NCBI GenBank assembly: GCA_037139415.1
Contig: JBAXGN010000040.1
Coordinates: forward strand, 1 to 46,082
Direction: 5' to 3'
DNA from: Verrucomicrobiota bacterium
GTDB lineage: Bacteria > Verrucomicrobiota > Verrucomicrobiia > Limisphaerales > Fontisphaeraceae
Length of the DNA: 46,082 nucleotides
Within the stretch, counting starts at the first letter, position 1; every line of letters starts with the position of its first letter. The notes beneath the pieces were generated by a model that was given only the letters and a program-made list of their open reading frames with translations, was not told the origin of the DNA and did no database searches. Positions 16,262 through 31,536 of this stretch are shown piece after piece. The position numbers were made by a program, and so were the translations under genes.

Positions 16262-16405
16262 CTCGGGTCAAGACTTGGAACAGGGTGGGGATTAAACCGC
16301 GAAACATGCGAAAAACGCGAAATACATTTGCGGCCTGAAAGCCATCATCACGGATAAGACCGAAGACTGGATTTTTGCAGAAAAATGAACCGGCAGAAAA
16401 ATAAG
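16262..16405. repeat. Dispersed repeat, partial copy A
   Basis: From GGGTCAAGACTTGGAAC to GGCAGAAAAAT this stretch matches parts of copies B (16826-17153) and C (29116-29455): the 'AACCGCGAAACATGCGAAAAACGCG' and 'CATTTGCGGCCTGAAAGCCATC' segments are shared, as are the paired 'GCAGAAAAAT' motifs at 16377 and 16393. The middle of the element is deleted. A partly repeated 'TTTAACCACGGATAACACGGAT' follows at 16418-16440. Confidence 0.7.
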
Positions 16406-16825
16406 TCCGAAGAATTTTTAACCACGGATAACACGGATCCAAAACTAGGATAAAACTAGTACAAAACTAGTACGCCATGATAAATCCGAAGGCGGAATTG
16501 TGATAAAATTGTGATGAAATAGATTTTTTAGCACAATTTTGCCCGCGAATTGACGCCAATAAACGCGAATGGGAACCGGGAATCGGAACATAGCAAAAAG
16601 ATGAATTGGCAGAAACATTATGACCTGAAGATAGAAGCTGGGAGTCAGGAGTTGGAATCCGCAAAAGACCGCAACCGGGCGGGTGCCGATGGGACACATG
16701 GGGAAATGAGAGTGATTCGCGCGAGTTCGCGTGATCAGCAGGCAGACAATACTCATGTCATTCATGGGAGCGAGCGTAGCAGGGATTTCAAAAAGGTGGT
16801 TGCCGCCCAGAGGAATACAATTCAA
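16406..16825. other. Intergenic repeat debris
   Basis: No gene is recognised. The stretch contains fragments typical of relic environmental repeats: the AACCACGGATAACACGGAT string, AAAACTAGTACAAAACTAGTAC duplicated tracts, a CGCGAATTGACGCCAATAAACGCGAATGGG tract, and further 'GGCAGAAACAT' and 'GAGTTGGAATC' motifs. Copy number elsewhere cannot be judged from this window. Confidence 0.55.
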
Positions 16826-17153
16826 TGCGGAATGCGGAATGAAAACTCCAAATTTTGCAGAAAAATAGATGGGCAGAAAAATCACTGCTAGAAAAGAGAG
16901 GTTGGAGTCAAGACTTGGAACGGGGGTGGGGAATTAAACCGCTAAACATGCGAAAAACGCGAACTGCATTTGCGGCCTGAAAGCCATCCTCCAGACGCCG
17001 GTTGCGTTCTATGACAGTTTTCTGCAAAAGCAATTGGGTTCCCATTTTTATGCCGGTCTATTTTCTGCATGATCGGTTTCCCATTTTTATGCCAGCTAAT
17101 CTTTTTGCCATGTCCCTTTCCCCATTTTTAGCTGTTTTCACTCTCCCACTGGC
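16826..17153. repeat. Dispersed ~320-bp repeat, copy B (left edge of accessory block)
   Basis: This copy matches copy C (29116-29455) in the same orientation. The first roughly 100 bp (16834-16935 versus 29131-29232) are identical by eye; the remaining part has scattered changes and a small indel, and the end TTTTCANTCTCCCNCTGGCA is again shared. It carries paired GCAGAAAAAT motifs and inverted ATTTTTCTGC/CCCATTTTTATGCC motifs towards the right end, which suggests a miniature mobile element with inverted ends. No transposase frame is inside it. Confidence 0.8.
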
Positions 17154-19155: not shown

Positions 19156-22100
19156 TTATTCGTTTTGGTGATTTACGCTAGCCAGGGCGTGACGCAAATC
19201 AGAAAGCACAGGTTCCACTTTAGGCAACGGTGATTTTCCCAATTTGGACTCAATAGAGGCTAGAAATGTGCTCAGCTTGCCGTCTTCAGGAAACTGTATC
19301 GGAATTCCATCCGAATCTGGAACACAGATCACGAGTTTATCGTATTCAAAACGGCATTCCGCTGTGTCGTTCCCATCCCCTGCTTTCCGAGTCAACTTGA
19401 TATGATGACCCTTGAAAAATACGTTTTTATCACTTTGACCAATAATCAAGCGCCGCCATTCAGCACCGGGCAATTCCCACGAGGAATGGGTTTTGTTTAA
19501 TAATCCATCGATTAAACGATTTCTCAGCGTGGCACTCGCACCGAGTAAAATGTCATGTTCATTCCAATTAACTTTACGAAATAGGAAAAAACCATTGTTG
19601 CAGTAATTCTGTATCTTTTTGTGGTCCGAATACTTTGTTAATAACTCGCCGCCATGCCGAATAATATCAAGCATCCACGGCTCGTATGTCTCATCAGCCC
19701 TGGGAGATTCGATCATTTTGCGCAACCCGGCTTCGATATACGAATTGCCGTTTATAGAGTCGATCAGGCATAGCATTCCATCTCGGAACTCTTTCTGCCC
19801 GGACTTGTGATCAAGTATTTCAGACCAGTTGTTCTTGGTATTAACAAAAATGATTTTTTGTTGCCACCCCAGTTTGATTGGCTTGCTCTGGGCAAGGACT
19901 GCCCTTGCCACCAGAAACTCGTCGTCCATGCCAACATAACTTTTCCCCTCGTTGTCGAAAAGTCGAGCAAACACCTCCAGCCGATGCTTAAAAGTTTTAA
20001 GGTCATCTTCTGGTGGTAATAGCAAATCAATTTGCCCGTTAAAGATCGGATGAGCTTCAGCTACAATAATCGCAGGTTCCCACTCGCTGCCAACAGAAGA
20101 GCAGCGGATAAGCTGTGCCTTGCGTTTTTCTTCCAGAAATTGCTCGGGCTGGAATCCGACCAAGGAATTCTCGGATTTATCATCGGAGAGTGCATCGAGC
20201 ATGGATCCATGCTTTTTTGCTAAACTGCCAAGTTTATCCAGACTCTTAATTGCGTTGGCAAAATTCTTAGCCTCGAATTGGGTATTAGCCAATAGATTTC
20301 GGACGACCCTAAACCAGTGAACCTCCTCTGGGCCTCCCGCTGGAATAGGATTGCGCAAGAATATGTGGATAGCGTGAAGCCACAGCCTCTCTGCGATGGT
20401 CACTGGTTTCGCCGTACCCTCGAAGAAAACTGCGTCGAGACCATGCTTGTCGAATGGTCCCACACCTTTATCGATAAGGCGGCGGCGGAGCGAGACGATC
20501 GGCCACTCACAACTCTGATCCCGGGGCGAAAGGCAATTAAGGCCATCAAAGACGTGCTCGACACAATCCAGAGTGAAGAGTTTATCCCACAGCGGCGCTT
20601 GATCCTCTGCATCCGCTTCTAACCAAGCTTTCTCAAAATTCCCCAGCGACGCGTGGAAATTCACGGCTAGCGCAACGAAGGTTCTGAAGTAAACCTTGGA
20701 TACCGCATCTGCCGGCTGCGGCTTATCATGTTGGAAGTGCCAGAAAAGATCGAGCCAGTGCCAGTCGAGTAACAATTTCCATTTCGGAAGGTCTCGATTT
20801 TTAGGCCAATCGATTTCACCATGCGTCTCGATCAACCATGCCTTAAACTTTTCAAAGCCCGTCAGCTCTTTACCACGGGCATTCATTTTAACATAGATTT
20901 CATCGGATAATCCCAGACTGCCCAAGTCCAGTACATCCATGGTAATTGGCGCCGAAGGCGATTCCGCTAAATTTGCGTAAAAATCTCGCAGTCCCTCTTC
21001 ACTAGCAAACTTCGTATGGATTGCGTCGAGCATGGTCAACGCGCCGACGATGGTTGGGTCATGCCGCCAAGCTCGGAAAAACCATGTCTGGTTTTGAATT
21101 TGCTCCGCCGGAGGCTTGTCCAAGTCCTCGGGTTTGTAATTAAGAAGTTTTGAGAAAAACTGATGAGAACTCGGCCTTACAGAGTAACGGAAGCGGGCTT
21201 CATTCTCCTTATCTGCTACATCTTTCATTATTTTTCTAAAGTTCTCCAACTTATCTGCGGCGCAGGCGAGAAACCAGTGGAGTAAAAACAAAGTGGTGAG
21301 TCGCTGTTGGCCATCAATGGGCTGAAAAATGCGCTTCTCGACAACCTCACCATAGCGCTGCTTCTTGACAACCTCACCATAGACGAAATCCAAGCTCAGG
21401 GGGGCGTTGTGTTTCAATGCGTTCAGCAAGTCCGTGAGGAACTTTTCCCGTACCGCCTTAGCAGATGCTCGCCCTTGGGCGTAGTCCCGTTGGATTAGAG
21501 GGATTTCGACTCGATCGTATTCCGCGATCAGTTTAACGAAGCTAACGCGCTGTCCATTACGCTCTGGTGATTTTGTATCTTCTCTATCTCCAGGGGCGGT
21601 GGGAGCTGAAATTATCTGTCCCTGCGTATCAGGTTTCGTCAGATCTGAATCACCACGAGAACTCCCTGGTGCTTTCTCCTCCCATGTGTCGGCAAAGAAT
21701 GTATCCAAAGTGCTCGTGATCTCGGATAAATAGTCGGTTGCGTCTTCCGGTGTCCAATTCAGCAAGTTGTCAGGTGCCTTTGAGTAACTTTTGGTGAAGA
21801 CACTGCGGGTGCAGGGTAAAAGATACTTGGTCTGCTGGTTGAGTCCTAACACCCATGCGCGTTTCACGGCAAAGGGACTATTGCCGTATCCCCGATTTGT
21901 TCCGGCATCGAGCAACGTTAAATTCATGAGCCCATTACTCGCGCCCAAACCTCTCATGCCTTCCATCTGATCACGCAAGCTGCAGTAAAGTTTATATAGA
22001 TGGTCCCGATCGTCAGATTTCTCGTTTAGTGCTTTCCGCACTTTCACAAGATCCTCCAGAAGTGTCTTATTTGCGGGTGGCGGGGGATCCCAATAAGCGT

Positions 22101-23406
22101 TTATCGATGCAAGTGCAAAGCGTAGTTCGTCAGGTTTTTCCGGTTCGCGTGACGCAGTCGCGCGGATGTGTTCAATATCCCATGAATCCTTCTTGTACGC
22201 TTGAAAGGAAAAACGGACGGTACCGGCTATATCAGCATTCAAAGTTGCAAGGTTCAGGCATAACAGGAGCTCTTTTATTCGGGCGTTTGGCTCGTCATAT
22301 TTCAAGTCTTTCAAATAGCCCTCCAGTTTGTCGCGCGAGGTATTTTCTCCCAAGACATGTTTGCGAATCTTCTTTTTTATGAGACGTGTGAACTCTGTTT
22401 TCTTAAGCTCTAAAGACTCCTTCAACAAGATCGGAATCATCTCGCCGTTTTTATCAACTTCTACCAGAAAGCCGATCATGTGGAAAAGGCGGTTATCCTC
22501 AAACCACTCCTCTAAGGTACCAAAAAGCTCATCCACTTCCTGCCATAGCTTTTTGCGTTCCCTACTGTCCTTCAGCACATCAAAGATTAGGTCGAAAATC
22601 TGCCGATCCTTGTCCACTGTCCATTTGTTCTGCTCGGTTCTTTGTCGGGCAATCCACTCAAAAAGCAGTTCGATGCGGTTGTCTGTGCTCCCCCTTCCGC
22701 TCAAAAAGCTCCAAAACTCCGGATCCTGAAGGCGTCGTTCTATTTGATCCCAGCGCAGAGCAATCAGATGGCGATCATCCTGATCAAGCACTCCTGTGCC
22801 GAGAAATAGTGCCCGAATCAGCTCCGAATCACGGAGTTTGATTTTCCCCGCATTGAGGCGGGTGAACGCATGGTTGGCATCCTTCTCCTCGATCTCGTGC
22901 CAGATGAACTTGGCACAGGCCTGATTGGGATCTGTCAACGAGGGCAGTTGACAGTGTTTATGTTTAGGCTCTTCAAACCATTTCTGAATTGCCTCATCCG
23001 CCTTTTCGAGGAAATAGAGATCCGGCGAGACGAAATCTGGGATTTGGCCTGCTGCGGAATCCGGTTGGAGCAACTCAGAGAGCCCGTTTTCACGTTCCGG
23101 GTGGCGTGCATAGTGGATCTGAAATGACGGATTATTTAACTGCCGCAGTATCAGGAAAATTGTGGTCAGCCGCTGTTGACCATCCACAACCTCCCAGTCC
23201 TTATCCCGTTTCACCACCACGAGCGGCTGCAGGCAATAGTATTCCGATGAACCCTTATTTGCCTCGAATTTCGCTAGATCGTTCAACAATGCCTCCACTT
23301 GATCCGCATCCCAACGGTAGCCGCGCTGGTAGTTGGGAATAAAGAACACTTCATTTTTTTCCACAAGATCTGCCACCGACCTGAGTTTGAGCGGAACTGT
23401 ACTCAT
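19156..23406 (-). CDS. Double DUF262 giant with DUF1524 (GmrSD-like) nuclease domain
   Basis: A 1416-residue fusion of two DUF262 modules. The first has 'IPNYQRGYRW' (residues 23-32), the signature 'VVDGQQRLTTIFLIL' (73-87) and, after a helical stretch, a DUF1524 HNH-type centre 'WDIEHI' (409-414) plus 'NLTLLDAGTNRGYGNSPFAVKR'. Together these match the GmrS and GmrD halves of type IV, modified-DNA restriction systems. A linker (about 590-625) leads to a second module with 'IEIPLIQRDYAQGR'-type start, 'QPIDGQQRLTTLFLLHWFLA' and 'EIYVKMNARGKELTGFEKFKAWL', but no second HNH. These are usually separate neighbouring genes, so the fusion is unusual. DGQQR binds and hydrolyses nucleotide in relatives. 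Confidence 0.85.
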   Translation of the reverse strand: MSTVPLKLRSVADLVEKNEVFFIPNYQRGYRWDADQVEALLNDLAKFEANKGSSEYYCLQPLVVVKRDKDWEVVDGQQRLTTIFLILRQLNNPSFQIHYARHPERENGLSELLQPDSAAGQIPDFVSPDLYFLEKADEAIQKWFEEPKHKHCQLPSLTDPNQACAKFIWHEIEEKDANHAFTRLNAGKIKLRDSELIRALFLGTGVLDQDDRHLIALRWDQIERRLQDPEFWSFLSGRGSTDNRIELLFEWIARQRTEQNKWTVDKDRQIFDLIFDVLKDSRERKKLWQEVDELFGTLEEWFEDNRLFHMIGFLVEVDKNGEMIPILLKESLELKKTEFTRLIKKKIRKHVLGENTSRDKLEGYLKDLKYDEPNARIKELLLCLNLATLNADIAGTVRFSFQAYKKDSWDIEHIRATASREPEKPDELRFALASINAYWDPPPPANKTLLEDLVKVRKALNEKSDDRDHLYKLYCSLRDQMEGMRGLGASNGLMNLTLLDAGTNRGYGNSPFAVKRAWVLGLNQQTKYLLPCTRSVFTKSYSKAPDNLLNWTPEDATDYLSEITSTLDTFFADTWEEKAPGSSRGDSDLTKPDTQGQIISAPTAPGDREDTKSPERNGQRVSFVKLIAEYDRVEIPLIQRDYAQGRASAKAVREKFLTDLLNALKHNAPLSLDFVYGEVVKKQRYGEVVEKRIFQPIDGQQRLTTLFLLHWFLACAADKLENFRKIMKDVADKENEARFRYSVRPSSHQFFSKLLNYKPEDLDKPPAEQIQNQTWFFRAWRHDPTIVGALTMLDAIHTKFASEEGLRDFYANLAESPSAPITMDVLDLGSLGLSDEIYVKMNARGKELTGFEKFKAWLIETHGEIDWPKNRDLPKWKLLLDWHWLDLFWHFQHDKPQPADAVSKVYFRTFVALAVNFHASLGNFEKAWLEADAEDQAPLWDKLFTLDCVEHVFDGLNCLSPRDQSCEWPIVSLRRRLIDKGVGPFDKHGLDAVFFEGTAKPVTIAERLWLHAIHIFLRNPIPAGGPEEVHWFRVVRNLLANTQFEAKNFANAIKSLDKLGSLAKKHGSMLDALSDDKSENSLVGFQPEQFLEEKRKAQLIRCSSVGSEWEPAIIVAEAHPIFNGQIDLLLPPEDDLKTFKHRLEVFARLFDNEGKSYVGMDDEFLVARAVLAQSKPIKLGWQQKIIFVNTKNNWSEILDHKSGQKEFRDGMLCLIDSINGNSYIEAGLRKMIESPRADETYEPWMLDIIRHGGELLTKYSDHKKIQNYCNNGFFLFRKVNWNEHDILLGASATLRNRLIDGLLNKTHSSWELPGAEWRRLIIGQSDKNVFFKGHHIKLTRKAGDGNDTAECRFEYDKLVICVPDSDGIPIQFPEDGKLSTFLASIESKLGKSPLPKVEPVLSDLRHALASVNHQNE

Positions 23407-23602: not shown

Positions 23603-24163
23603 TCAAAAACGTCCCGACACCACACCCGTTTTCTTAAGCAACCCGGCTGGCGTCTTTGCGTTTGCCTGTTTCATCATGGCCAGCAGCACGCGTCCGGCGG
23701 CTTCGGCGTCGGCTTGGGCGTGGTGGTGGTTGAATTCGTGACCGATGTGCGCCGCCAAGGTACTGAGTTGGTGGTTGGGCAGGTCCGGCCAGACCTGTTG
23801 AGCGAGGCGATAGGTACACAGGTAATCAAACGCGGGGCATTGGAGGCCGAAATGATCCAGGGTGGCGCGCAATTTTTTGATATCGAATTGCGCATTGTGT
23901 GCGATCACGATATCGGCACGGGTCAGGTGTTTTAGTAGTTCCGGGGCGATGGCGGGGAATTCGGGGGCGTTCTTCACGTCGAACCAGGTGAGATTATGGA
24001 TTTCGGTAAAGTCATCCCGAAACCAGCCGTGGCCTTTGGGCGGACGCACCAGCCAATAAGGCGACTCGACCAGTTCGCCATCCTTAAATACCGCGAGCCC
24101 GGCGGCGCAGATGCTGACGTGGGAACGATTGGCGGTTTCAAAATCTAGGCTGGTGATGGTCAT
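23603..24163 (-). CDS. DEDDh 3'-5' exonuclease (DnaQ-like)
   Basis: A 186-residue exonuclease of the DnaQ/PolC-epsilon type. Exo I is 'ITSLDFETAN' (Asp7, Glu9), Exo II 'IVIAHNAQFDIKKL', and Exo III 'HHHAQADAEAAGRVLLAM', with the histidine that makes it a DEDDh enzyme. It can remove 3' nucleotides in proofreading, repair or RNA trimming; no polymerase module is attached. It lies 5 bp after the upstream DUF6915-like gene, in the same operon. Overlapping frames on either strand are shadows of it. Confidence 0.9.
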   Translation of the reverse strand: MTITSLDFETANRSHVSICAAGLAVFKDGELVESPYWLVRPPKGHGWFRDDFTEIHNLTWFDVKNAPEFPAIAPELLKHLTRADIVIAHNAQFDIKKLRATLDHFGLQCPAFDYLCTYRLAQQVWPDLPNHQLSTLAAHIGHEFNHHHAQADAEAAGRVLLAMMKQANAKTPAGLLKKTGVVSGRF

Positions 24164-24168
24164 ATAAT

Positions 24169-24459
24169 TTAGAACAATCCCAGCCGTTGGTAGTGGGGTT
24201 CATCTTTGGGAAAGGGGTCGGTTTCCCGCCAGCCTTCCAGTTTAAGATCCGTGATAATATGTTGGCAGGCGGCTTCGGCGGCCTCGTTTCCCCACAATTT
24301 GCGCACCTCCTCAATGCCTGCTAGGTGATGGCGTTTCTTCCGGTGCCGCATGCCATAGGGTGGTTGCCCAGCGAATTCATCCAACCAGCGATGGACTTCG
24401 GCATACGGTTTGCCAGAGGTTTCTAGGGCCTCGGCACAGTGTTGTTCAAAGGTGGGCAT
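24169..24459 (-). CDS. DUF6915-like protein
   Basis: A 96-residue soluble protein with 'YAEVHRWLDEFAGQPPYGMRHRKKRHHLAGIEEVRKLWG', where RHR..RHH is reminiscent of the DUF6915 family motif, followed by 'ACQHIITDLKLEGWRETDPFP'. The conserved histidines and arginines could bind metal or nucleic acid, but no function is known. The stop is 5 bp from the ATG of the DEDDh exonuclease, so the two are translated together. The family assignment is from memory of the motif and should be treated as tentative. Confidence 0.65.
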   Translation of the reverse strand: MPTFEQHCAEALETSGKPYAEVHRWLDEFAGQPPYGMRHRKKRHHLAGIEEVRKLWGNEAAEAACQHIITDLKLEGWRETDPFPKDEPHYQRLGLF

Positions 24460-24654
24460 GGTTGTTGCAGGGATCAGGACACAACTCTTTCAGAGTTGAG
24501 GGAACACTGCGCACCCGACCCAAGGTAGGATCGTCCACCCCTTTTGCCCTTGGCCGATCCAACCGTTGGGCTTCGATGGCGCAATCCCATTCGGGATTGA
24601 ATGTGGCCAGGTGCAGGCGGTTCTTAAGGTAGCGCGTGACATAGGGCGGTTGTT
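24460..24654. other. Short gap with REP-like hairpins
   Basis: No gene. Two hairpins of the same style as those at the start of the window can be read: AACTCTTTCAGAGTT (about 24485-24499) and GCAATCCCATTCGGGATTG (about 24581-24599). They separate the DUF6915/exonuclease pair from the FtsK-like gene, so the cluster may have two transcription units. Confidence 0.55.
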
Positions 24655-25581
24655 TCAGTTTGCATGCATTTGTTCGAGCAGTTCAGGTTCGTAATTGGGT
24701 TTTCCAGGTGCGGCATTAGCTTTCACAATTTCTTGCAGTTCCGTGTCGCTGATAAAAGCAGCTTTGGCACGGACCACTTTGGAGGAATTGGATGGATGAT
24801 AAAACAGAGCGCTATTACCCGGCTGCTGGTGTGGTTCAGCAGAGTCCTCGCAGGCTTCCATATCAAAAGTGATTCGGGCTGGCTGGCTGCATTCGATGAT
24901 CTCGGTGAGATTGTCGCTGCCGGATATATTGGCTGCGGAAATGCAATGGACACCTGCGGCACGGGACATCATTCTAATACGGGCCCCACGTGATGGTAAT
25001 GCCTTGTCACAAACATGGTTTAAGACCTGAAATTCGTTTAGGATGACGACAATATACGGGAACCTGGCTGGAATGACGAGTTCGTCCGCTTCCGCTCTCC
25101 CTGCCAAGCTATCTACCCAAACGGGTGGTGGAACAGCCTTGGCGCGTTGATTGAAATACCGGGTGCTGTACACGCCAATACGGGTAAGGATTAAATGGCG
25201 TTTTTCCACCTCATCGACAACCCAGTGGGCTGCCGCGGTTGTCTGTTTTTTGTTGGTGATGATCGGAGCAACCAGATGAGGCAAATCACTGTACCGCTGT
25301 AATTCAGTGGTTTTCAAATCAACCATCAATAAGCGGAGTTCGTCCGGAGCGAAACGGTCCACCAGCGAGGCGATGATGGCATGAAGGCAAGCAGCCTTCC
25401 CAGAACCCGGATGGCTGCCGGTAATCAACAGGTGGGGCATACGATGAAAATCGGCGATCAGCGGCCGGTTGAATTCATCCAGGCCCAATGCGAGCGGGAT
25501 ATGTGACTTGGTGTTGCGCCAGGCTTCAGACTTCAATAAGTTGTTTATGCTATTCATGTTATCAAGTGTTTCTGGACTCAT
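24655..25581 (-). CDS. FtsK-like motor domain with degenerate Walker motifs
   Basis: A 308-residue protein that aligns along its length with the FtsK/SpoIIIE motor: 'IPLALGLDEFNRPLIADFHRMPHLLITG', 'DELRLLMVDLKTTELQRYSDLPHLVAPIITN', 'WVVDEVEKRHLIL', 'YIVVILNEFQVL' and 'KANAAPGKPNYEPELL'. Two catalytic changes stand out: Walker A reads GSHPGSGKA (residues 55-63), with one extra residue and alanine instead of Ser/Thr, and Walker B reads VVILNEF, with asparagine for the usual aspartate (Asn182). The usual 'ATQRP' becomes 'SAANIS'. There is no membrane anchor and no gamma domain. ATP hydrolysis is probably lost. It overlaps the ExbB-like stop codon by one base. Confidence 0.8.
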   Translation of the reverse strand: MSPETLDNMNSINNLLKSEAWRNTKSHIPLALGLDEFNRPLIADFHRMPHLLITGSHPGSGKAACLHAIIASLVDRFAPDELRLLMVDLKTTELQRYSDLPHLVAPIITNKKQTTAAAHWVVDEVEKRHLILTRIGVYSTRYFNQRAKAVPPPVWVDSLAGRAEADELVIPARFPYIVVILNEFQVLNHVCDKALPSRGARIRMMSRAAGVHCISAANISGSDNLTEIIECSQPARITFDMEACEDSAEPHQQPGNSALFYHPSNSSKVVRAKAAFISDTELQEIVKANAAPGKPNYEPELLEQMHAN

Positions 25582-26282
25582 TATTCGGGCAGATACTCAT
25601 TTTCCATTTTGGACACCAGTTCCTGGGCGAAGATGTCCAATTCTACGGTAGTGGCGCGCAATTGATGCACCAGATAGTTGTAACCAAACATGGACGGGAT
25701 GGCGACCAGCAGACCGGCTACGGTGGTGACCAGGGCGGCGGATACGCCAGGAGCCATGGTGGCCAGGCTGGCTTCGCCCTTCATGGCAATGCCGCTAAAG
25801 GTGCTCATCACGCCCCAAACGGTTCCCAACAACCCCAGGAACGGAGCGCCGCTGACCGCGATGGCCAGTATGATCAAACCGGATTCCAGCTTGAGTGATT
25901 CCACGGCCACCGTGTTTTCCACTGCGCGTTTCACCAGTTCCATGCCTTTGAACGACACCAACTGGCGGGCAGCTTCGCCGCTGCCACCAGCTTTGAGACG
26001 CGTCTTGAGGCTGGAACAACCGGCCTGGTAGATGGCAAACATGGGGCAACCCTCAATGCTTATGCGCCGCTCATGCATCTCCATCACCGACGCTTGGCGG
26101 TTAAATTCCTCGGCAAAGTGGGCATTCAGCTTTCTGGCCCGGCGGATTTGCAGGGCCTTGGCCACCATCACCGACCAAGCGATAACGGAAAACAGGAGTA
26201 ACAGAAGAATAATGCCCTTTGCCTCCGGCGTCGCCTGCCGCCAGATGAAGGTTAGTTCTGTAAATTGGGTAAAGGATGCCAT
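25581..26282 (-). CDS. MotA/TolQ/ExbB-type proton channel protein
   Basis: A 233-residue membrane protein. One hydrophobic segment lies near residues 22-41 ('GIILLLLLFSVIAWSVMVAKA') and two in the C-terminal half ('SGLIILAIAVSGAPFLGLLGTVWGVMSTF' and 'APGVSAALVTTVAGLLVAIPSMFGYNYLV'), the layout of TolQ/ExbB. Those proteins use the proton-motive force to energise TonB- or TolA-type partners. Its stop overlaps the ATG of the FtsK-like gene by one base, so the two are translationally coupled. No ExbD/TolR-like partner is nearby, which is unusual. ATG at 26282 follows the upstream DnaA-like stop by about 30 bp. Confidence 0.85.
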   Translation of the reverse strand: MASFTQFTELTFIWRQATPEAKGIILLLLLFSVIAWSVMVAKALQIRRARKLNAHFAEEFNRQASVMEMHERRISIEGCPMFAIYQAGCSSLKTRLKAGGSGEAARQLVSFKGMELVKRAVENTVAVESLKLESGLIILAIAVSGAPFLGLLGTVWGVMSTFSGIAMKGEASLATMAPGVSAALVTTVAGLLVAIPSMFGYNYLVHQLRATTVELDIFAQELVSKMENEYLPE

Positions 26283-26312
26283 AATGAAATGTTGGTTGGA
26301 TGGTTCCTTAGG

Positions 26313-27032
26313 TTATTCATAAAGGACTCCCTGCAATAAGCTTTCAACGACTTCCAAGGTCAGTTTTTTTCCGGTGAGCGCGGCATAGGATTCCACATGT
26401 ATCAGCGCGCCTTCGAGACGACGAATGTCGGTGCGGATATGGGCGGCCAGAAAATTCAGGATGTCGTCCGGCACCTGGCCTCCCATCCACTGCGCTTTTT
26501 TACGAAGAATCGCGAGACGTGTTTCCAAGTCCGGCACCTGTAAATCGGCGGTTTGTCCCCACTCAAAGCGCGAGACCAGCCGTTGTTCAAGCCCAGGAAT
26601 TTCGGAGGCGGGCCGGCTGCAGGCCAACACGATCTGTTTGTGTGCTTCGTGAAGCGCGTTGAAAATGTGGAAGAATTCTTCCTGCAGGCGTTCCTTGCCA
26701 GCAAGAAATTGAATATCGTCAATCAACAACACATCCATCTGGAGATATTTCTGGCGGATTATGGCAAGCTGGTTGTTTAGAATGGCGTCAATGCATTCGC
26801 CCGTAAATTGTTCAGATGAAAGACAGGCAACGCGCGCGGCTTTATTATTGCTGGAAACATGGTTGCCGATGGCATGCAGCAAATGAGTCTTGCCAAGGCC
26901 TGCACCACCATAAATAAACAGTGGATTGTAGGTAGTACCGGGAGCATTGGCGACGGCTTTGGCGGCCGCACAAGCGAAGTCGTTTTGATGGCCAACAATG
27001 AATGATTCAAAAGTGTGTCTGGGGTTTAACAT
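26313..27032 (-). CDS. DnaA-type AAA+ domain protein lacking the DNA-binding domain
   Basis: A 239-residue protein that is essentially domain III of DnaA. It starts 'NPRHTFESFIVGHQNDFACAAAKAVA', followed by Walker A 'YGGAGLGKTHLLHAIG' (about 41-56), Walker B 'DVLLIDDIQFL' (100-110), sensor 1 'LACSRPASEIPGLEQRLVSRFEWG' with the arginine finger, and sensor 2 'DIRRLEGAL'. It stops at 'LTLEVVESLLQGVLYE', so domain IV (helix-turn-helix, DnaA-box binding) and domain I are absent. Hda has a similar architecture, but this could also act as a regulator or adaptor. It is the third gene from the promoter-proximal end of its cluster and 30 bp before the ExbB-like gene. Confidence 0.85.
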   Translation of the reverse strand: MLNPRHTFESFIVGHQNDFACAAAKAVANAPGTTYNPLFIYGGAGLGKTHLLHAIGNHVSSNNKAARVACLSSEQFTGECIDAILNNQLAIIRQKYLQMDVLLIDDIQFLAGKERLQEEFFHIFNALHEAHKQIVLACSRPASEIPGLEQRLVSRFEWGQTADLQVPDLETRLAILRKKAQWMGGQVPDDILNFLAAHIRTDIRRLEGALIHVESYAALTGKKLTLEVVESLLQGVLYE

Positions 27033-27079
27033 AAAATGCTGGTTGCTTGCGTCGTAGTAAAGGGTCTTGGAGTCTTAAC

Positions 27080-28201
27080 TCAGGTCTGGAGTTCAGGTGT
27101 ATAATCGTTTTCCTCCTTGCCGAAGGTCCAGGCGACCGCCTGTATCGCCCGCTCCATCGTGGGCGGCACGCGGAGAAAGTAGTCCTTGAAGCTGCCATCC
27201 GGTTCCGGCGTGGCATTCACCACCTTCACCATCACCAGTGGCTCGTCACGAGGGAGTTGCTGGCGGTACAAAATGCCAAAATCATCCCGGTGTATTTCTA
27301 CGGCCCCGGAATCCATCAAGTATCGTTCCACCCCATACCGTTCCAGCATCACCCGCCGCATTTCGACATTGGTTTCCAAATTAATCTCTGCGACGGTTAT
27401 GGTGTCTGGGGAAACCACCACCTTTTCCGGCACGCGGACACCATGAATGGCAAAAATAGAAAAACCGTCGTAATAGCGAATGGCCGGACCGGTTTCGCAA
27501 TGAATCCGCCCCTGCTCATTGCAGTGAATATATTCCGGTTTCGCTCCAATAAAAGCCCAATCCCAGAATAACGCCGCCGCGCCGCAAGATTTTGCCAGGT
27601 CGAAAGAAGGAACCAGCTTTGAAACGTCAATTCCCAAACGGCCAAGAAAATCATACCGTGCCAGCAACATATCAAACTGGCCAAAGTCATCCCTGAATGT
27701 CCATGCTCGAAGGCTCCGAAACATGTTCCGAACATTTTCATGAATTTGTTCGTGGATCTGTTCGATGACTTGCATGTTTCTCGCATAGGCCGCGCGGCGG
27801 AAATCGGAAAAGGTTTCGTGGGTCCGGCGTTCGGGGAGTTGCCGACGGATATATTGGCGGATCTGCGCGTTGACCGCGCTGGAGACTTGTTCGTTCATTT
27901 GGCAGGTGAATTTATCGCGCAGTGCTTCGTGGACCTCGCCATTGATAGGGTCGGCAAGTTGATGACGCATATTTCTACCCTCCTGCCGTAATAGGGCGAC
28001 GGCGATTGAAATTTGAAGGGGACTGTCAAAATGAAGAATATGCGGCGGGGCCGACTTATCAGCCACAGCATAGAGGCGGCACAGGATTTCCCGGACTTTC
28101 GCGCGGTCAACGGCGGCGGTATCCCTGCCTGTTTTGATCCATTCGTCCCATACCTGCGGAATCAGCGCGAGTTGCGCTTCAGATAATGTCCGAGTTTTCA
28201 C
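27080..28201 (-). CDS. DUF6745-like protein
   Basis: A 373-residue soluble protein resembling the DUF6745 family: 'FSIFAIHGVRVPEKVVVSPDTITVAEINLETNVEMRRVMLERYGVERYL' and a C-terminal 'AVAWTFGKEENDYTPELQT'. The first 170 residues are helical and charged. The start is GTG at 28201, with an AGAGGA stretch about 12 bp upstream. It follows the QGDV small protein by 6 bp. Family members are found scattered in phage-rich and actinobacterial genomes; no biochemical role is known to me. Confidence 0.75.
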   Translation of the reverse strand: MKTRTLSEAQLALIPQVWDEWIKTGRDTAAVDRAKVREILCRLYAVADKSAPPHILHFDSPLQISIAVALLRQEGRNMRHQLADPINGEVHEALRDKFTCQMNEQVSSAVNAQIRQYIRRQLPERRTHETFSDFRRAAYARNMQVIEQIHEQIHENVRNMFRSLRAWTFRDDFGQFDMLLARYDFLGRLGIDVSKLVPSFDLAKSCGAAALFWDWAFIGAKPEYIHCNEQGRIHCETGPAIRYYDGFSIFAIHGVRVPEKVVVSPDTITVAEINLETNVEMRRVMLERYGVERYLMDSGAVEIHRDDFGILYRQQLPRDEPLVMVKVVNATPEPDGSFKDYFLRVPPTMERAIQAVAWTFGKEENDYTPELQT

Positions 28202-28207
28202 AGCGGT

Positions 28208-28570
28208 TTAATCCTCTACGTAACGGATCGCTTCTGGCGCATACTCCCACTGGCGGGTGACACGGTAATTACCAGCGGGCAATTGGATTTCAGAATGTTC
28301 CTGATGCCTCACCACGCCGCCAACGGGAAGCGAGACAAACAACGACCCGGTCAGCATCGTCGGCTTTTGGTTGGCTGTGGAAATTTCCCCTTCCTTCCAC
28401 CAGTCAGCGGGATCAACTGTCTCCAGCGCATGATGATGTCCAGTGGCCTCTCCGTGCGCTAAAATGATGCGCGTGGATCTATTCTGCCTCACAGCAGTGG
28501 TGGGTATCTCAGCGATGCGCTCAATGAGCACGTCGCCTTGCCGGTAGTGTTTGCAGTCTGTTGTTTTCAT
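28208..28570 (-). CDS. Small QGDV-motif protein
   Basis: A 120-residue protein: 'RQGDVLIERIAEIP', 'STRIILAHGEATGHHHALE', 'GSLFVSLPVGGVVRHQEHSEIQLPAGNYRVTRQWEYAPE' and 'IRYVED'. The repeated His/Glu pairs (GHHH, HQEH) suggest a compact beta-protein, possibly metal-binding. Homologues are often seen next to DUF6745 proteins as a conserved pair, which matches its position 6 bp upstream of that gene. Function unknown. Confidence 0.7.
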   Translation of the reverse strand: MKTTDCKHYRQGDVLIERIAEIPTTAVRQNRSTRIILAHGEATGHHHALETVDPADWWKEGEISTANQKPTMLTGSLFVSLPVGGVVRHQEHSEIQLPAGNYRVTRQWEYAPEAIRYVED

Positions 28571-28591: not shown

Positions 28592-29047
28592 TTATGTGAA
28601 TTGAGCCAGGGTACCCAAAATAATGCGGATGGAGGCCTTGGTTTGGGGAGTGAGGTTGCGGTCGGTCAGGTCATCGGTTTGCAGTTTCCAGATTAAATCG
28701 TAGTTGAGATCATGGAAGCGCAGCTCCACTTGGCATTTTCCGTCGTATTTGAGTTGGGCCACCAGTTGCTCCAGCTCCTTCTTCAGCCGTTCGGTATCGG
28801 GACCGGTAGCGGGCTCCGATTGTTTAAGCCGGGGCAGGAGGTTCAACACACTGGTCTTGGCATTATCGTCAACGACCATGGCCGGGAACTCGCTGAGAAT
28901 TTGGATCGGCGAACTGTCTATCCCAGTCTGGCCACCGGGCAGTGCCAGGACCAGATAGGCTTTCAGGTCCGGATATTTTTTCCGAATCAGGTTGAACCGC
29001 AGTTTAGCGACGGCAACCGCCTTCTGTAATTGATCAGCATTTAGCAT
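28592..29047 (-). CDS. Hypothetical protein of the DnaA/FtsK-like cluster
   Basis: A 151-residue soluble protein, unrecognised. It begins 'MLNADQLQKAVAVAKLRFNLIRKKYPDLKAYLVLALPG' and has 'KKELEQLVAQLKYDGKCQVELRFHDLNYDLIWKL' in the second half, with charged helices and one hydrophobic patch. ATG at 29047 is preferred over the frame's start at 29149, because the extra codons read through repeat copy C. It is the first gene of the minus-strand cluster, 21 bp before the QGDV protein; no export signal or known motif. Confidence 0.6.
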   Translation of the reverse strand: MLNADQLQKAVAVAKLRFNLIRKKYPDLKAYLVLALPGGQTGIDSSPIQILSEFPAMVVDDNAKTSVLNLLPRLKQSEPATGPDTERLKKELEQLVAQLKYDGKCQVELRFHDLNYDLIWKLQTDDLTDRNLTPQTKASIRIILGTLAQFT

Positions 29048-29115
29048 GGCTAACACCATGCACCGGTATCGGCAGCGGATCAAAGGAACTGAATGTCCCC
29101 AATCTTTGTCCGAAA

Positions 29116-29455
29116 ATGCGGATTGCGGATTGCGGAATGAAAACTCCAAATTTTGCAGAAAAATAGATGGGCAGAAAAATCACTGCTAGAAAAGAGAGGT
29201 TGGAGTCAAGACTTGGAACGGGGGTGGGGAATTTAACCGCGAAACAGGTATAGACGCGAAATACATTTGCGGCCTGAAAGCCATCCAGACGCCGTTTGCG
29301 TTCTATGACAATTTTCTGCAAAAGCAATTGGGTTCCCATTTTTATGCCGGTCTATTTTTCTGCATGATCGGCTTCCCATTTTGTTGCTGTTTTCAATCTC
29401 CCGCTGGCAATGCAGGAGGCGGACATGGCAAAAAATTAGCTGGCAGAAAAATATA
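29116..29455. repeat. Dispersed ~320-bp repeat, copy C (right edge of accessory block)
   Basis: Direct repeat of copy B (16826-17153), in the same orientation, with a fully identical core of about 100 bp and scattered changes after that. It ends with 'GGCAAAAAATTAGCTGGCAGAAAAATATAATC'-style paired motifs. Its position directly upstream of the first gene of the cluster may also affect that gene's promoter. Confidence 0.8.
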
Positions 29456-29558
29456 ATCAAAGAAGATAGGAGCTTGGAATCAGGAGTTGGAATGTGCGGT
29501 AAACAACCCATTGCTGGGAAACCTCTAATGGACTATCTTTATCTCAGAAAGTTAGGTT

Positions 29559-29868: not shown

Positions 29869-30288
29869 TTAGCCAGTGGGCTTGAGCGGGAGGAGTTCCT
29901 GTTTAACGTGGGAAGGAAGCAAAGCAAATTCGGGATCTTTATGCACCAGTATGGCATTCACGTGCATGGCGGATGCCGCCACAAAAGCATCCGCGAAAGA
30001 AATCTTGTGGCCGGTTTTCCACTCGGCGGCCGCCGCGCACAGGGCTTCGTCAGAGTGTATCCAAATGATTCTTAATCGTTTCAGGTCCGCAATGGCTTTG
30101 CGACCTGCTTCCACCCCGTAATCACTGGCCGTGATGTATTGGACTTCCGTAAGACTGGCAAAGCAGGCATACAGCATGGTTTCTCCCCGCGCGGCTTTTT
30201 CCAATAAATCAAGCACTCGTGGCGCACCTGGTTCTGCTTGGAGAAAGGCGATAATAGCGGAAGAGTCGAGCAGGAAGGAATCAGCCAT
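29869..30288 (-). CDS. PIN-domain toxin (VapC-like)
   Basis: A 139-residue PIN-domain ribonuclease. The four acidic positions can be placed at 'LLDSSAIIAFLQ' (Asp8), 'SLTEVQYI' (Glu), 'ISFADAFVAASA' (Asp) and 'LVHKDPEFALL' (Asp). Such toxins usually cleave tRNA or rRNA when released from their antitoxin. It overlaps the antitoxin gene by 8 bp, so the pair is co-translated. The true start is GTG/ATG-like at 30288. Confidence 0.85.
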   Translation of the reverse strand: MADSFLLDSSAIIAFLQAEPGAPRVLDLLEKAARGETMLYACFASLTEVQYITASDYGVEAGRKAIADLKRLRIIWIHSDEALCAAAAEWKTGHKISFADAFVAASAMHVNAILVHKDPEFALLPSHVKQELLPLKPTG

Positions 30289-30547
30289 TGGGGTGCGAAC
30301 TCATGCGGTGGCGCTTGGTTTCTTCTCGCGCCCGGTCGCGGGCTCGTTCTTGAAGCAGGCGCGTGAGCATACCGCCACCCGCAAACCGCCCATAAAGGGA
30401 ATGAACCGCCTCCAAGGCGTCTTGTTCGCCCTTTACCGCCAGGTTGGTCTGGTCCAGAATACGGGAAATCTGCCTCCAGATTTCGCGTTTTTCGTCAACC
30501 GACAACGTCCGGATTTCTTCCAACACATGTTCAGCCGTTGCTGTCAT
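30281..30547 (-). CDS. Antitoxin partner of the PIN toxin
   Basis: An 88-residue protein immediately before the toxin, with helices 'AEHVLEEIRTLSVDEKREIWRQISRIL' and a basic tail 'LTRLLQERARDRAREETKRHR' suited to binding and neutralising a PIN toxin. There is no strong AbrB or MazE-type fold. It overlaps the end of the 330-residue gene by 4 bp (ATGA), so the three genes form one operon. Confidence 0.65.
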   Translation of the reverse strand: MTATAEHVLEEIRTLSVDEKREIWRQISRILDQTNLAVKGEQDALEAVHSLYGRFAGGGMLTRLLQERARDRAREETKRHRMSSHPNG

Positions 30548-31536
30548 AGCTTAAATTTACTGCGGGTCATCCGCCCGGTCAAGCGGGGAATAAATTCCGT
30601 CCGGAGCCGGCTGATGCGTTTGGGACTAGTACCCGGCACCCAGCCGAGACCGGCGCACAAAAACTCATGCTTCTTTTCACCTTTCAACCCAAGCCGCTTG
30701 GCTTCGGCATCCAAGTGAGGCAGTTTCTCGGCATTCTGTTTCCGTTCCACAAGCCCTTCGGCCAAGGCGGCACCCTGGCGCTTGGGTACCCGCACGCGAT
30801 GCAACTTGGCGATGGCGTCCCAGCAGATGTCCCGCTTGGGGTCAAACGACCAGTAGGCGGGGATGTGGATCATGGTGCCGTACGCGGAGAGGTTGACCGA
30901 GAGTTTGAAGGTGAGCGGGTGATCGTACTTCATCCCAAAGAGATTCCACCGCAGGCAAAACGCATCGAACACGGCCTGAAACACCTCCGCTGGCGAGCGC
31001 ATATTCACTTCAAACGACGGCCGCAGATTGCGCTCCACACACATGCTGCGGCGAATCACGCCCTTATGTTCGCGGTAGGCTTCGACATCAAAGACCGCCT
31101 TGATGCGCGCCCATTGGCGGCGCAACTCGGGATTGGTCTTGGTTTCCTGGGCGTGCTGATAAAATTTGACCTGGGTTTTGACCAGCTTTTCGTAGGTGCC
31201 CGAATGGACCTGCTTTTCATGATCCGCCACCGCTGTGCAGACGCTTTCGTCGGGTGGTTCCGGCAGCATCTCAATGACCAGTTGTTGCCGGGCATTTAAT
31301 TTCTTCCCCTTTTCCAGCGTCATCAGGCAATCCACCAGCACATCCTGGATATTAAACGGCCAGAGCGTCGGTGGAACAAACATCCACTGGTATAGCGCGT
31401 GCAATGAAAGGGCTGCGGCTTCGGTCAACTTGGGGATGACTGCATGATAGCGGCGCAAAGCATCCTCCGCCCAGTTTGCCCGGTCAAACGCACGGGCTTT
31501 GAGCTTTTCCAGATCGCGATCAAGTGCGGTGGTCAT
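30544..31536 (-). CDS. Hypothetical 330-residue protein upstream of the TA pair
   Basis: Not recognised. It is basic and probably helical, with 'RSMCVERNLRPSFEVNMRSPAEVFQAVFDAFCLRWNLFGMKYDHPLTFKLSVNLSAYGTMIHIPAYWSFDPKRDICWDAIAKLHRVRV' as the most structured part, and a basic C-terminus 'RLRTEFIPRLTGRMTRSKFKL'. No signal or membrane segment. Its stop overlaps the antitoxin ATG by 4 bp, so expression is coupled to the TA pair; it could be an unrelated passenger, an antitoxin-like partner or the third component of the system. Confidence 0.55.
   Translation of the reverse strand: MTTALDRDLEKLKARAFDRANWAEDALRRYHAVIPKLTEAAALSLHALYQWMFVPPTLWPFNIQDVLVDCLMTLEKGKKLNARQQLVIEMLPEPPDESVCTAVADHEKQVHSGTYEKLVKTQVKFYQHAQETKTNPELRRQWARIKAVFDVEAYREHKGVIRRSMCVERNLRPSFEVNMRSPAEVFQAVFDAFCLRWNLFGMKYDHPLTFKLSVNLSAYGTMIHIPAYWSFDPKRDICWDAIAKLHRVRVPKRQGAALAEGLVERKQNAEKLPHLDAEAKRLGLKGEKKHEFLCAGLGWVPGTSPKRISRLRTEFIPRLTGRMTRSKFKL

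What the first reader, a model, noticed from the sequence alone, without database searches (positions are those of the whole stretch)
24655..28570. Candidate new system: DnaA-domain AAA+ protein, ExbB-like channel, inactive FtsK-like motor and DUF6745/QGDV pair
Five or six tightly spaced minus-strand genes combine an AAA+ ATPase derived from DnaA but without DNA-binding domain, a proton-channel component without its ExbD partner, a translationally coupled FtsK motor with broken Walker motifs, and a pair of unknown proteins with conserved motifs (plus an unknown 151-residue protein upstream). I know of no described operon with this mix, and energy-coupled membrane protein plus DNA-motor remnants suggest a DNA- or phage-related function.
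Basis: partly seen in the sequence, partly recalled or inferred. Interest (0 to 1): 0.75.

Follow-up and report, generated by a model that had tools for sequence, protein, structure and literature searches.

The report
Mobile operon with repurposed DnaA ATPase
The gene block is one copy of a mobile, gene-swapping operon found in one group of bacteria, often beside suspected virus-defence genes; it combines a cut-down replication-starter ATPase with two proteins that phages also carry, and its function is not known.

Summary
The genes and motifs are real; the claimed unit is only partly right. The block is one instance of a mobile operon in one Verrucomicrobiota order: p330 gene, a nearly invariant 23-nt element, variable cargo, a DEDDh exonuclease, often GmrSD. 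I inspected all 16 exonuclease loci found, in 13 of 320 genomes. The 23-mer lies in 12 of these 13 genomes and in 0 of 10 exonuclease-free ones. AAA+ ATPase + QGDV + DUF6745 occur together in 3 of 16 loci; in two the ATPase is a DnaA domain III alone. Both copies form one clade (bootstrap 100), keep the catalytic residues and have lost those for DnaA-DnaA contact (R227, L290) and tight nucleotide binding (D269). The 'ExbB' is a tolQ duplicate under purifying selection (dN/dS 0.12). The dead FtsK motor was found only here. So the five genes are no conserved system; a three-gene core and its operon frame recur, beside defence-type genes. Function is inferred. Side discovery: phage DUF6745 genes carry in-frame 9/12-nt repeat arrays in which almost only one or two residues per unit vary (67 nonsynonymous, 1 synonymous codon variant in 22 arrays).

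The parts
30544..31536 (-). p330: protein without Pfam family, upstream frame gene of the operon (95% identical copy on contig C77)
   Evidence: dN/dS C40/C77 0.08
30281..30547 (-). small antitoxin-like ORF (no family); its sequence is also present behind p330 on C77
   Evidence: role inferred from position before the PIN gene
29869..30288 (-). PIN-domain protein (VapC-like toxin by position)
   Evidence: Pfam PIN 56.7 bits
29080..29102 (-). 23-nt element TTGGGGACATTCAGTTCCTTTGA, 32 nt before the first cargo start codon
   Evidence: 13 sites in 12 genomes, exact in 11; 0 of 10 exonuclease-free genomes; no exact match in IMG/VR
28592..29047 (-). p151: protein without family; relatives on C77 and in G425
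28208..28570 (-). QGDV protein, predicted beta protein (pLDDT 76)
27080..28201 (-). DUF6745 protein; no repeat array here, C-terminal domain conserved
26313..27032 (-). DnaA': stand-alone DnaA domain III (AAA+), catalytic residues kept, AID-1/AID-2/sensor I lost
25581..26282 (-). TolQ': duplicate of the genome's own tolQ, no TolR/ExbD partner gene seen
24655..25581 (-). FtsK': FtsK beta-motor domain only, both Walker motifs degenerate
24169..24459 (-). DUF6915 protein, shared with C77 and with a GmrSD locus in G440
23603..24163 (-). DEDDh (DnaQ-like) exonuclease, downstream frame gene of the operon
19156..23406 (-). GmrSD/DUF262 protein with two GmrSD_N matches (1416 aa)
   Evidence: a GmrSD_N gene lies in the stretch of 9 of 16 exonuclease loci

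Best explanation
The block is the variable cargo of a mobile, defence-island-like operon: p330, 23-nt element, cargo, DEDDh exonuclease, often GmrSD. Shown: this frame recurs in one Verrucomicrobiota order while the genes between element and exonuclease are exchanged. Shown: AAA+ ATPase + QGDV + DUF6745 is one recurring cargo, and the AAA+ partner can be a DnaA domain III clade (DnaA') or a different 390-aa AAA+ protein. Shown by sequence only: DnaA' keeps ATP hydrolysis residues and the ssDNA-contact position R245, has no DnaA-box domain, and has lost the residues for DnaA-DnaA contact and very tight nucleotide binding. Inferred: DnaA' no longer joins initiation complexes but acts as an ATP-driven loader or remodeller with QGDV and DUF6745, handing foreign or phage replication intermediates to the exonuclease and GmrSD nuclease; that is, the operon defends against mobile DNA. 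TolQ' (intact channel, under selection) and the dead FtsK domain are additions of this lineage, perhaps a membrane anchor or sensor.
For: Frame: exonuclease family (E 1e-40 or better) in 13 of 320 order genomes, all 16 loci inspected; p330 in 10 of 16, GmrSD_N in 9 (5 by Pfam, 4 by tblastn), AAA390 in 6, DnaA' in 2, QGDV-DUF6745 in 3. 23-mer in 12 of 13 exonuclease genomes and 0 of 10 others, Fisher p 1e-5; 32-48 nt before the presumed start of the first cargo gene in 10 of 11 loci measured, whatever that gene is (the window and C77 values corrected by hand to 32). Core: L206 has p330 - DnaA' - QGDV - DUF6745 - exonuclease - GmrSD, with 4 and 6 nt between DnaA', QGDV and DUF6745. DnaA' clade: bootstrap 100; 13 residues (12 without the start Met) shared by both and absent from 24 canonical DnaA, against at most 4 in 276 control pairs. 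R227L, L290Q and D269S/G in both, with K178, T179, D235, D236, R245, R281, R285, R334 kept (roles of R227, L290, D269, R334 from passages of PMC4245941). Selection on the five genes shared with C77, dN/dS 0.08-0.14. Defence-type genes: GmrSD, HEC-06, PDC-S26, PDC-S10 and PDC-S48 model matches. Integrase or transfer genes near L205, L235, L234.
Against: No functional data. Only 3 loci carry QGDV-DUF6745 in this frame, and gene order differs (DnaA' lies after DUF6745 in the window, before QGDV in L206). An AAA+ gene also occurs in 5 of the 13 exonuclease loci without QGDV, so the link AAA+ to QGDV is not significant (3 of 3 against 5 of 13, p 0.1 by hand). DnaA' is overall as similar to the full-length DnaA of G012 as to the L206 copy (74% each); the clade rests on shared changes. 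A crude Walker-A scan found a P-loop gene upstream of the phage pairs in only 8 of 76. PADLOC gave no match for QGDV, DUF6745, p151 or p330 and only weak P-loop matches for DnaA'. GmrSD is absent from the retrieved stretch of 7 of 16 loci. p330 relatives occur in G013, G416, G007 and G203, which lack the 23-mer. All genomes by G handle may be metagenome bins; that C40 and C77 belong to one organism rests on the binning.
Confidence: 0.5

Rival explanations
1. The locus is an exchange hot spot in which unrelated accessory genes pile up; the genes share a place and perhaps a promoter, not a function.
For: C77 keeps p330, p163, TolQ', DUF6915 and exonuclease but lacks QGDV, DUF6745, DnaA' and FtsK'; cargo differs between most of the 16 loci; tandem copies and 5' remnants of the exonuclease gene mark recombination.
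Against: DnaA', QGDV and DUF6745 recur together in L206, 4-6 nt apart; the DnaA' copies form a clade with shared changes, not two independent captures. Every QGDV locus with enough sequence also had DUF6745 (43 of 43 viral, 17 of 17 other), although DUF6745 without a detectable QGDV exists (4 of 12 plasmid records).
Confidence: 0.3
2. DnaA', TolQ' and FtsK' are dominant-negative copies of three cell-cycle proteins (replication start, envelope constriction, chromosome segregation) that stop the host cycle, for abortive infection or for the benefit of an element.
For: All three are related to housekeeping genes of this genome and order; the FtsK copy has both Walker motifs broken. A prophage DnaA inhibitor, YfdR, is known (PMC4776307, title and start of abstract in the listing; one passage of PMC5742627).
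Against: DnaA' has lost DnaA-DnaA contact residues in both copies, so it should not poison DnaA oligomers. TolQ' and FtsK' are not found in L206 and L205, and C77 has TolQ' alone.
Confidence: 0.1
3. Prophage remnant: QGDV-DUF6745, the exonuclease and DUF6915 come from a phage and are decaying.
For: Nearest QGDV relatives include phage contigs (73% identity); exonuclease and DUF6915 match PHROGs; the DUF6745 repeat array of phages is missing here.
Against: None of the nine window proteins scanned matches a virion PHROG (the rest of the window was not scanned); dN/dS 0.08-0.14 shows function kept; the same operon frame with the 23-mer lies in 12 genomes and the 23-mer has no exact match in IMG/VR.
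Confidence: 0.07
4. Zorya-like defence: TolQ' is the proton channel of a ZorAB-type machine.
For: ZorA is a MotA/ExbB family channel (recalled); nuclease genes lie nearby.
Against: No ZorB/MotB/ExbD-type partner seen in the ORFs of 20-33 kb; no PADLOC match for TolQ' at E 0.01; TolQ' is present in only 2 of 16 loci.
Confidence: 0.02

Closest known systems
DnaA domain III and the DnaA/Hda group of AAA+ proteins
   Same: 67% identical to the genome's own DnaA; Walker A/B, arginine finger and sensor II kept
   Different: No domains I, II, IV; AID-1, AID-2 and sensor I residues lost; below the NCBIfam cut-offs of DnaA (328.2 of 343.9) and Hda (125.9 of 194.8); encoded in a mobile operon
TolQ of the Tol-Pal system
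   Same: 71% identical to tolQ of the genome's tol-pal operon (G000:C2); keeps 87 of 90 invariant residues
   Different: No TolR, TolA, TolB or Pal seen beside it; below the tolQ cut-off (160.2 of 221)
FtsK beta motor domain
   Same: Continuous alignment of residues 12-302 to P. aeruginosa FtsK
   Different: 308 aa against about 900 in the relatives, motor domain alone; Ser63 to Ala, Asp182 to Asn; only 72 of 153 invariant residues kept
GmrSD/DUF262 type IV restriction and defence-island candidates (HEC-06, PDC-S26, PDC-S10, PDC-S48)
   Same: GmrSD_N gene in 9 of 16 loci; PDC-S26, PDC-S10 and HEC-06 matches in the single loci tested
   Different: p330, the 23-mer, DnaA', QGDV and DUF6745 gave no or only weak matches in that catalogue, the 23-mer not being testable there
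QGDV-DUF6745 pair beside the STM4011-STM4015 radical-SAM genes and in Microcystis phage Ma-LMM01 (gp175-gp174)
   Same: Same two genes, same order
   Different: Other neighbours; no exonuclease operon frame

Membership tests
DnaA replication initiator | C-terminal domain IV that binds DnaA boxes | tested here: not met
   239 aa end with domain III
DnaA replication initiator | AID-1 Arg227, AID-2 Leu290 and sensor I Asp269 | tested here: not met
   L, Q and S in the window; L, Q and G in L206; at the 290 position the 24 canonical relatives have L or M
DnaA replication initiator | AAA+ catalytic residues (Walker A/B, arginine finger, sensor II) | tested here: met
Hda | NCBIfam Hda equivalog score | tested here: not met
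   125.9 of 194.8 bits
Hda | N-terminal clamp-binding motif | tested here: inconclusive
   N-terminus begins at domain III; motif not searched, none seen by eye
TolQ | Invariant residues of the order's TolQ | tested here: met
   87 of 90 kept
TolQ | Place in a tol-pal operon with TolR | tested here: not met
   (ORFs read by eye)
FtsK DNA translocase | Working Walker A and B motifs, membrane and gamma domains | tested here: not met
Zorya | ZorA match and ZorB partner | tested here: not met
   no PADLOC match for TolQ', no partner gene seen
Known anti-phage system in PADLOC 2.0 | Complete set of models of one system | tested here: not met
   of ten window proteins only exonuclease, GmrSD, FtsK' and DnaA' match any model, the last two weakly
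Anti-phage defence in general | Protection against phage | not testable with these tools
   needs an experiment

The most novel reading that the evidence does not exclude
A new mobile immune operon with exchangeable AAA+ heads, one made from DnaA by stripping off DNA binding and self-assembly, uses the pair QGDV-DUF6745 that phages also carry. Most phage versions bear hypervariable 3- or 4-residue repeat arrays with one or two changeable residues per unit, while the three bacterial versions in these operons lack the array. This suggests an arms race around a repeat-coded recognition protein.
Probability: 0.2. Interest if true: 0.88.

Novelty: new variant of a known kind. Interest (0 to 1): 0.62.

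Why it matters
It gives a signature (23-mer, p330, exonuclease) by which a so far unnamed mobile operon can be found and tested. It shows a replication initiator ATPase turned into an accessory-operon part by loss of the contacts that make DnaA an initiator. And it links the operon to a phage protein pair whose repeat arrays vary almost only at one or two residues per unit, a possible recognition code.

Tried and rejected
Five-gene system: rejected, since FtsK' orthologues were sought in 57 relatives, 384 class genomes, IMG/VR and GTDB contigs without success; limits: the class search used a cut-off stricter than the best canonical FtsK (1e-68 against 8e-68), 5 of 58 genomes had no FtsK match at all, and the contig scans need exact 8-residue matches. 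DnaA' in relatives: 126 genomes, 116 with a match; only the window has a domain-III-only gene of 239 aa; G004 has a 282-aa orphan relative, and frames of 206-246 aa in G450, G040 and G056 are partial matches, two of them at contig ends by coordinates, not checked further. TolQ', DnaA' and p330 in IMG/VR: none by exact peptides.

QGDV and DUF6745 folds: no PDB match at E 0.001 or better; NAD kinases and cupins appear only at Z 2-3.4, so no fold is claimed. BFVD gave only three matches below 1e-3, two named DUF6745 and one unnamed fragment. Rfam: nothing at 22-32 kb. The 23-mer can form a 6-pair hairpin, but its pairs never vary, so there is no covariation evidence. The DNA search of relatives scored only 5 candidates per genome and missed islands found later.

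In print: no paper in the held library names DUF6745 or DUF6915; searches on DnaA paralogues, repeat arrays and the operon theme gave nothing that looked relevant (no papers; listings only). STM4011-4015: 2 papers, listing only.
Full report
Observation. The window is the whole contig C40 of a 7.9-Mb, 378-contig genome, 98% complete. The GC content falls from about 0.55-0.60 to 0.44-0.54 between about 16 and 31 kb; there are smaller dips to about 0.50 near 5-8 and 33-37 kb.

A second copy in the same genome. Contig C77 holds p330, a p151 relative, TolQ', DUF6915 and the exonuclease at 87-93% DNA identity, but not QGDV, DUF6745, DnaA', FtsK' or the PIN gene. On C77, TolQ' is followed directly by DUF6915. 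dN/dS between the copies is 0.12 (TolQ'), 0.09 (DUF6915), 0.14 (exonuclease), 0.13 (p151) and 0.08 (p330), so these genes stayed under selection after the duplication.

Origin of the three 'housekeeping' genes. TolQ' is 71% identical to tolQ of the genome's tol-pal operon (C2) and groups with it (support of that node only 0.57, with a divergent paralogue of the same genome inside it). It keeps 87 of 90 residues invariant in 25 relatives. FtsK' keeps 72 of 153 residues invariant in 30 canonical FtsK; the worst canonical sequence in the leave-one-out test loses 6. Its codon positions differ 133, 101 and 177 times from the genome's own FtsK in 300 codons, so the reading frame is still constrained. 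DnaA' keeps 89 of 101 residues invariant in 25 DnaA sequences; in the leave-one-out test the genome's own DnaA loses 5 and the worst sequence 8.

The operon frame. Starting from QGDV, a scan of GTDB contigs gave 6 loci. L206 reads p330 - DnaA' - QGDV - DUF6745 - exonuclease - GmrSD on one strand; L205 reads integrase - 391-aa AAA+ - QGDV - DUF6745 - 162 aa - exonuclease - PD-(D/E)XK gene, with p330 nearby on the other strand. The exonuclease family occurs at E 1e-40 or better in 13 of 320 genomes of the order, at 16 places. I inspected all 16: p330 in 10 (one truncated), GmrSD_N in 9 (5 by Pfam; 4 by tblastn), the 390-aa AAA+ family in 6, DnaA' in 2, QGDV-DUF6745 in 3, DUF6915 in 3, TolQ' in 2, FtsK' in 1. 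Several stretches end at contig ends, so these are lower bounds. L199 adds a p330 locus with only the first 22 codons of the exonuclease. Integrases (L205, L235) or a type IV coupling-type ATPase, a primase and ArdC (L234) lie nearby.

The 23-nt element. TTGGGGACATTCAGTTCCTTTGA lies at 29080-29102 and at 12 other places in 23 genomes searched: in 12 of 13 genomes with the exonuclease and 0 of 10 without (the latter picked by me from genomes already seen; G012 among them has an exonuclease remnant, and G013, G416, G007 and G203 have p330 relatives); exact in 11 sites, one mismatch in G565 and two in G547; no match of the reversed control. The exception, G566, has a truncated p330 that runs into the exonuclease with nothing between. 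The element lies 32-48 nt before the presumed start codon of the first cargo gene in 10 of 11 loci measured, be it p151, the 390-aa AAA+ gene or DnaA' (there the window and C77 starts were taken 3 and 1 bases off, mended here by hand); in L198 the distance is 388 nt. It may be a promoter or operator, a recombination site or an RNA leader; this is not settled.

DnaA'. The window and L206 copies form a clade with ultrafast bootstrap 100 (two long-branch sequences, L089 and L104, were left out) and share 13 residues, one of them the start Met, absent from 24 canonical sequences; the largest such number in 276 canonical pairs is 4. Overall identity does not show this: the window copy is 74% identical both to L206 and to the full-length DnaA of G012. 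Mapped on E. coli DnaA, K178, T179, D235, D236, R245, R281, R285 and R334 are kept; V211 is Ile, as in the two canonical relatives compared; R227 is Leu, L290 is Gln and D269 is Ser or Gly. In E. coli, R227 (AID-1) and L290 (AID-2) are needed for DnaA-DnaA contacts in initiation complexes, D269 for stable nucleotide binding and R334 for hydrolysis (PMC4245941, passages; see also passages of PMC5742627). The role of R245 and V211 in ssDNA binding is recalled. Thus DnaA' looks like an ATPase released from initiator assembly. This speaks against a simple dominant-negative role.

The pair QGDV-DUF6745. DUF6745 lies by QGDV in 43 of 43 IMG/VR loci with at least 1500 nt downstream (40 with DUF6745 downstream, 3 upstream; read from the listing; the script's own filter printed 25 because it used stop-to-stop frames) and in 17 of 17 further loci, 16 cellular or plasmid and 1 phage. 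These loci were all found through QGDV. The converse does not hold: of 12 plasmid records with DUF6745, 4 (Nostoc, two Nocardia, Mycolicibacterium) have no QGDV match, and in Nonomuraea the best matches lie far apart (not followed up). In three plasmids the pair lies beside the STM4011-4015 genes. None of 85 viral, plasmid and phage loci has a relative of DnaA', TolQ', FtsK', DUF6915, exonuclease, p151 or p330 in the flanks held (at most 6 kb, E 1e-4). QGDV is predicted as a beta protein (pLDDT 76), DUF6745 as an N-terminal helical part, long low-confidence helices in the repeat region and a confident C-terminal domain (pLDDT 84.6); neither has a PDB match at E 0.001 or better.

Side discovery: repeat arrays in phage DUF6745. 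Of 131 QGDV relatives in IMG/VR the best 80 were kept. TRF reports a period that is a multiple of 3 in 69 of these 80 loci, of which one (L178) is a two-copy match and no array; 12 nt is the commonest period (50), with up to 77 copies. 58 arrays have at least 10 units of 9 or 12 nt, and in 47 of these 58 only 2 or 3 nucleotide columns per unit have a major base below 90%. In 22 arrays with known frame (those with indels, more than 4 variable columns or no complete frame were dropped; L125 and L126 are near-duplicates), variable columns fall at codon positions 1, 2 and 3 in 21, 30 and 1 cases, and variant codons are nonsynonymous 67 times and synonymous once. As a rule one or two adjacent residues vary (such as R/G/W/S/E and D/A) in a fixed scaffold (such as QV, SV, AT, AV or A). 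L125 and L126, from contigs with different metagenome numbers, are identical over 9.7 kb except for a 36-nt and a 1-nt difference, both inside the array. 37 of 80 contigs end within 1200 nt downstream of QGDV, 3 of 80 within 1200 nt upstream; in 32 the array runs into the contig end, so the arrays seem to break assemblies. Outside the viral set, an array appears in 1 of 17 loci (L209) and not in the window, where the region reads like a decayed array (by eye).

Mechanism and verdict. Shown: a mobile operon frame, its signature element, exchange of cargo, selection on five shared genes, a changed DnaA domain III clade, and an AAA+/QGDV/DUF6745 core in three loci. Inferred: defence against phages or other mobile DNA, with the ATPase feeding substrates to nucleases. 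TolQ' and FtsK' are local additions.

Noticed in passing
L055-L057, L106-L182 (IMG/VR), DUF6745 genes beside QGDV: In-frame 9/12-nt tandem arrays in most of the 80 phage loci; variation almost only at one or two adjacent residues per unit (67 nonsynonymous, 1 synonymous variant codon in 22 arrays); the near-identical contigs L125 and L126 differ only there; many contigs end in the array.
   Followed up: partly
L058 (G000:C77) 870-1786: Tandem copies of about 400 bp holding only the first codons of an exonuclease gene plus a repeat also found at window 24446-24613; L199 has a 22-codon exonuclease remnant: recombination at the exonuclease 5' end.
   Followed up: partly
G416 and G007 contigs; L201-L203: p330 belongs to a family with up to 10 diverged matches per genome; by eye the loci opened lie near RecQ-, DprA-, methyltransferase- or type I restriction-like genes. 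Function unknown.
   Followed up: no
window 16267-17115, 29124-29493; G000:C7 3016-4188; L058 3633-3985: Interspersed repeat family of up to about 260 bp, roughly 76-94% identical between longer copies.
   Followed up: no
G004:C131 (L104) 1709-2557: Another orphan DnaA AAA+ relative, 282 aa, 48% identical, with none of the other operon genes found in the 8 kb held.
   Followed up: no
L093, L094, L095: QGDV-DUF6745 next to STM4011-STM4015 radical-SAM genes in Streptomyces, Methylobacterium and Deinococcus plasmids.
   Followed up: no
window 19156-23406: 1416-aa protein with two GmrSD_N matches; in G440 (L237) the matching halves are two separate ORFs followed by DUF6915.
   Followed up: partly
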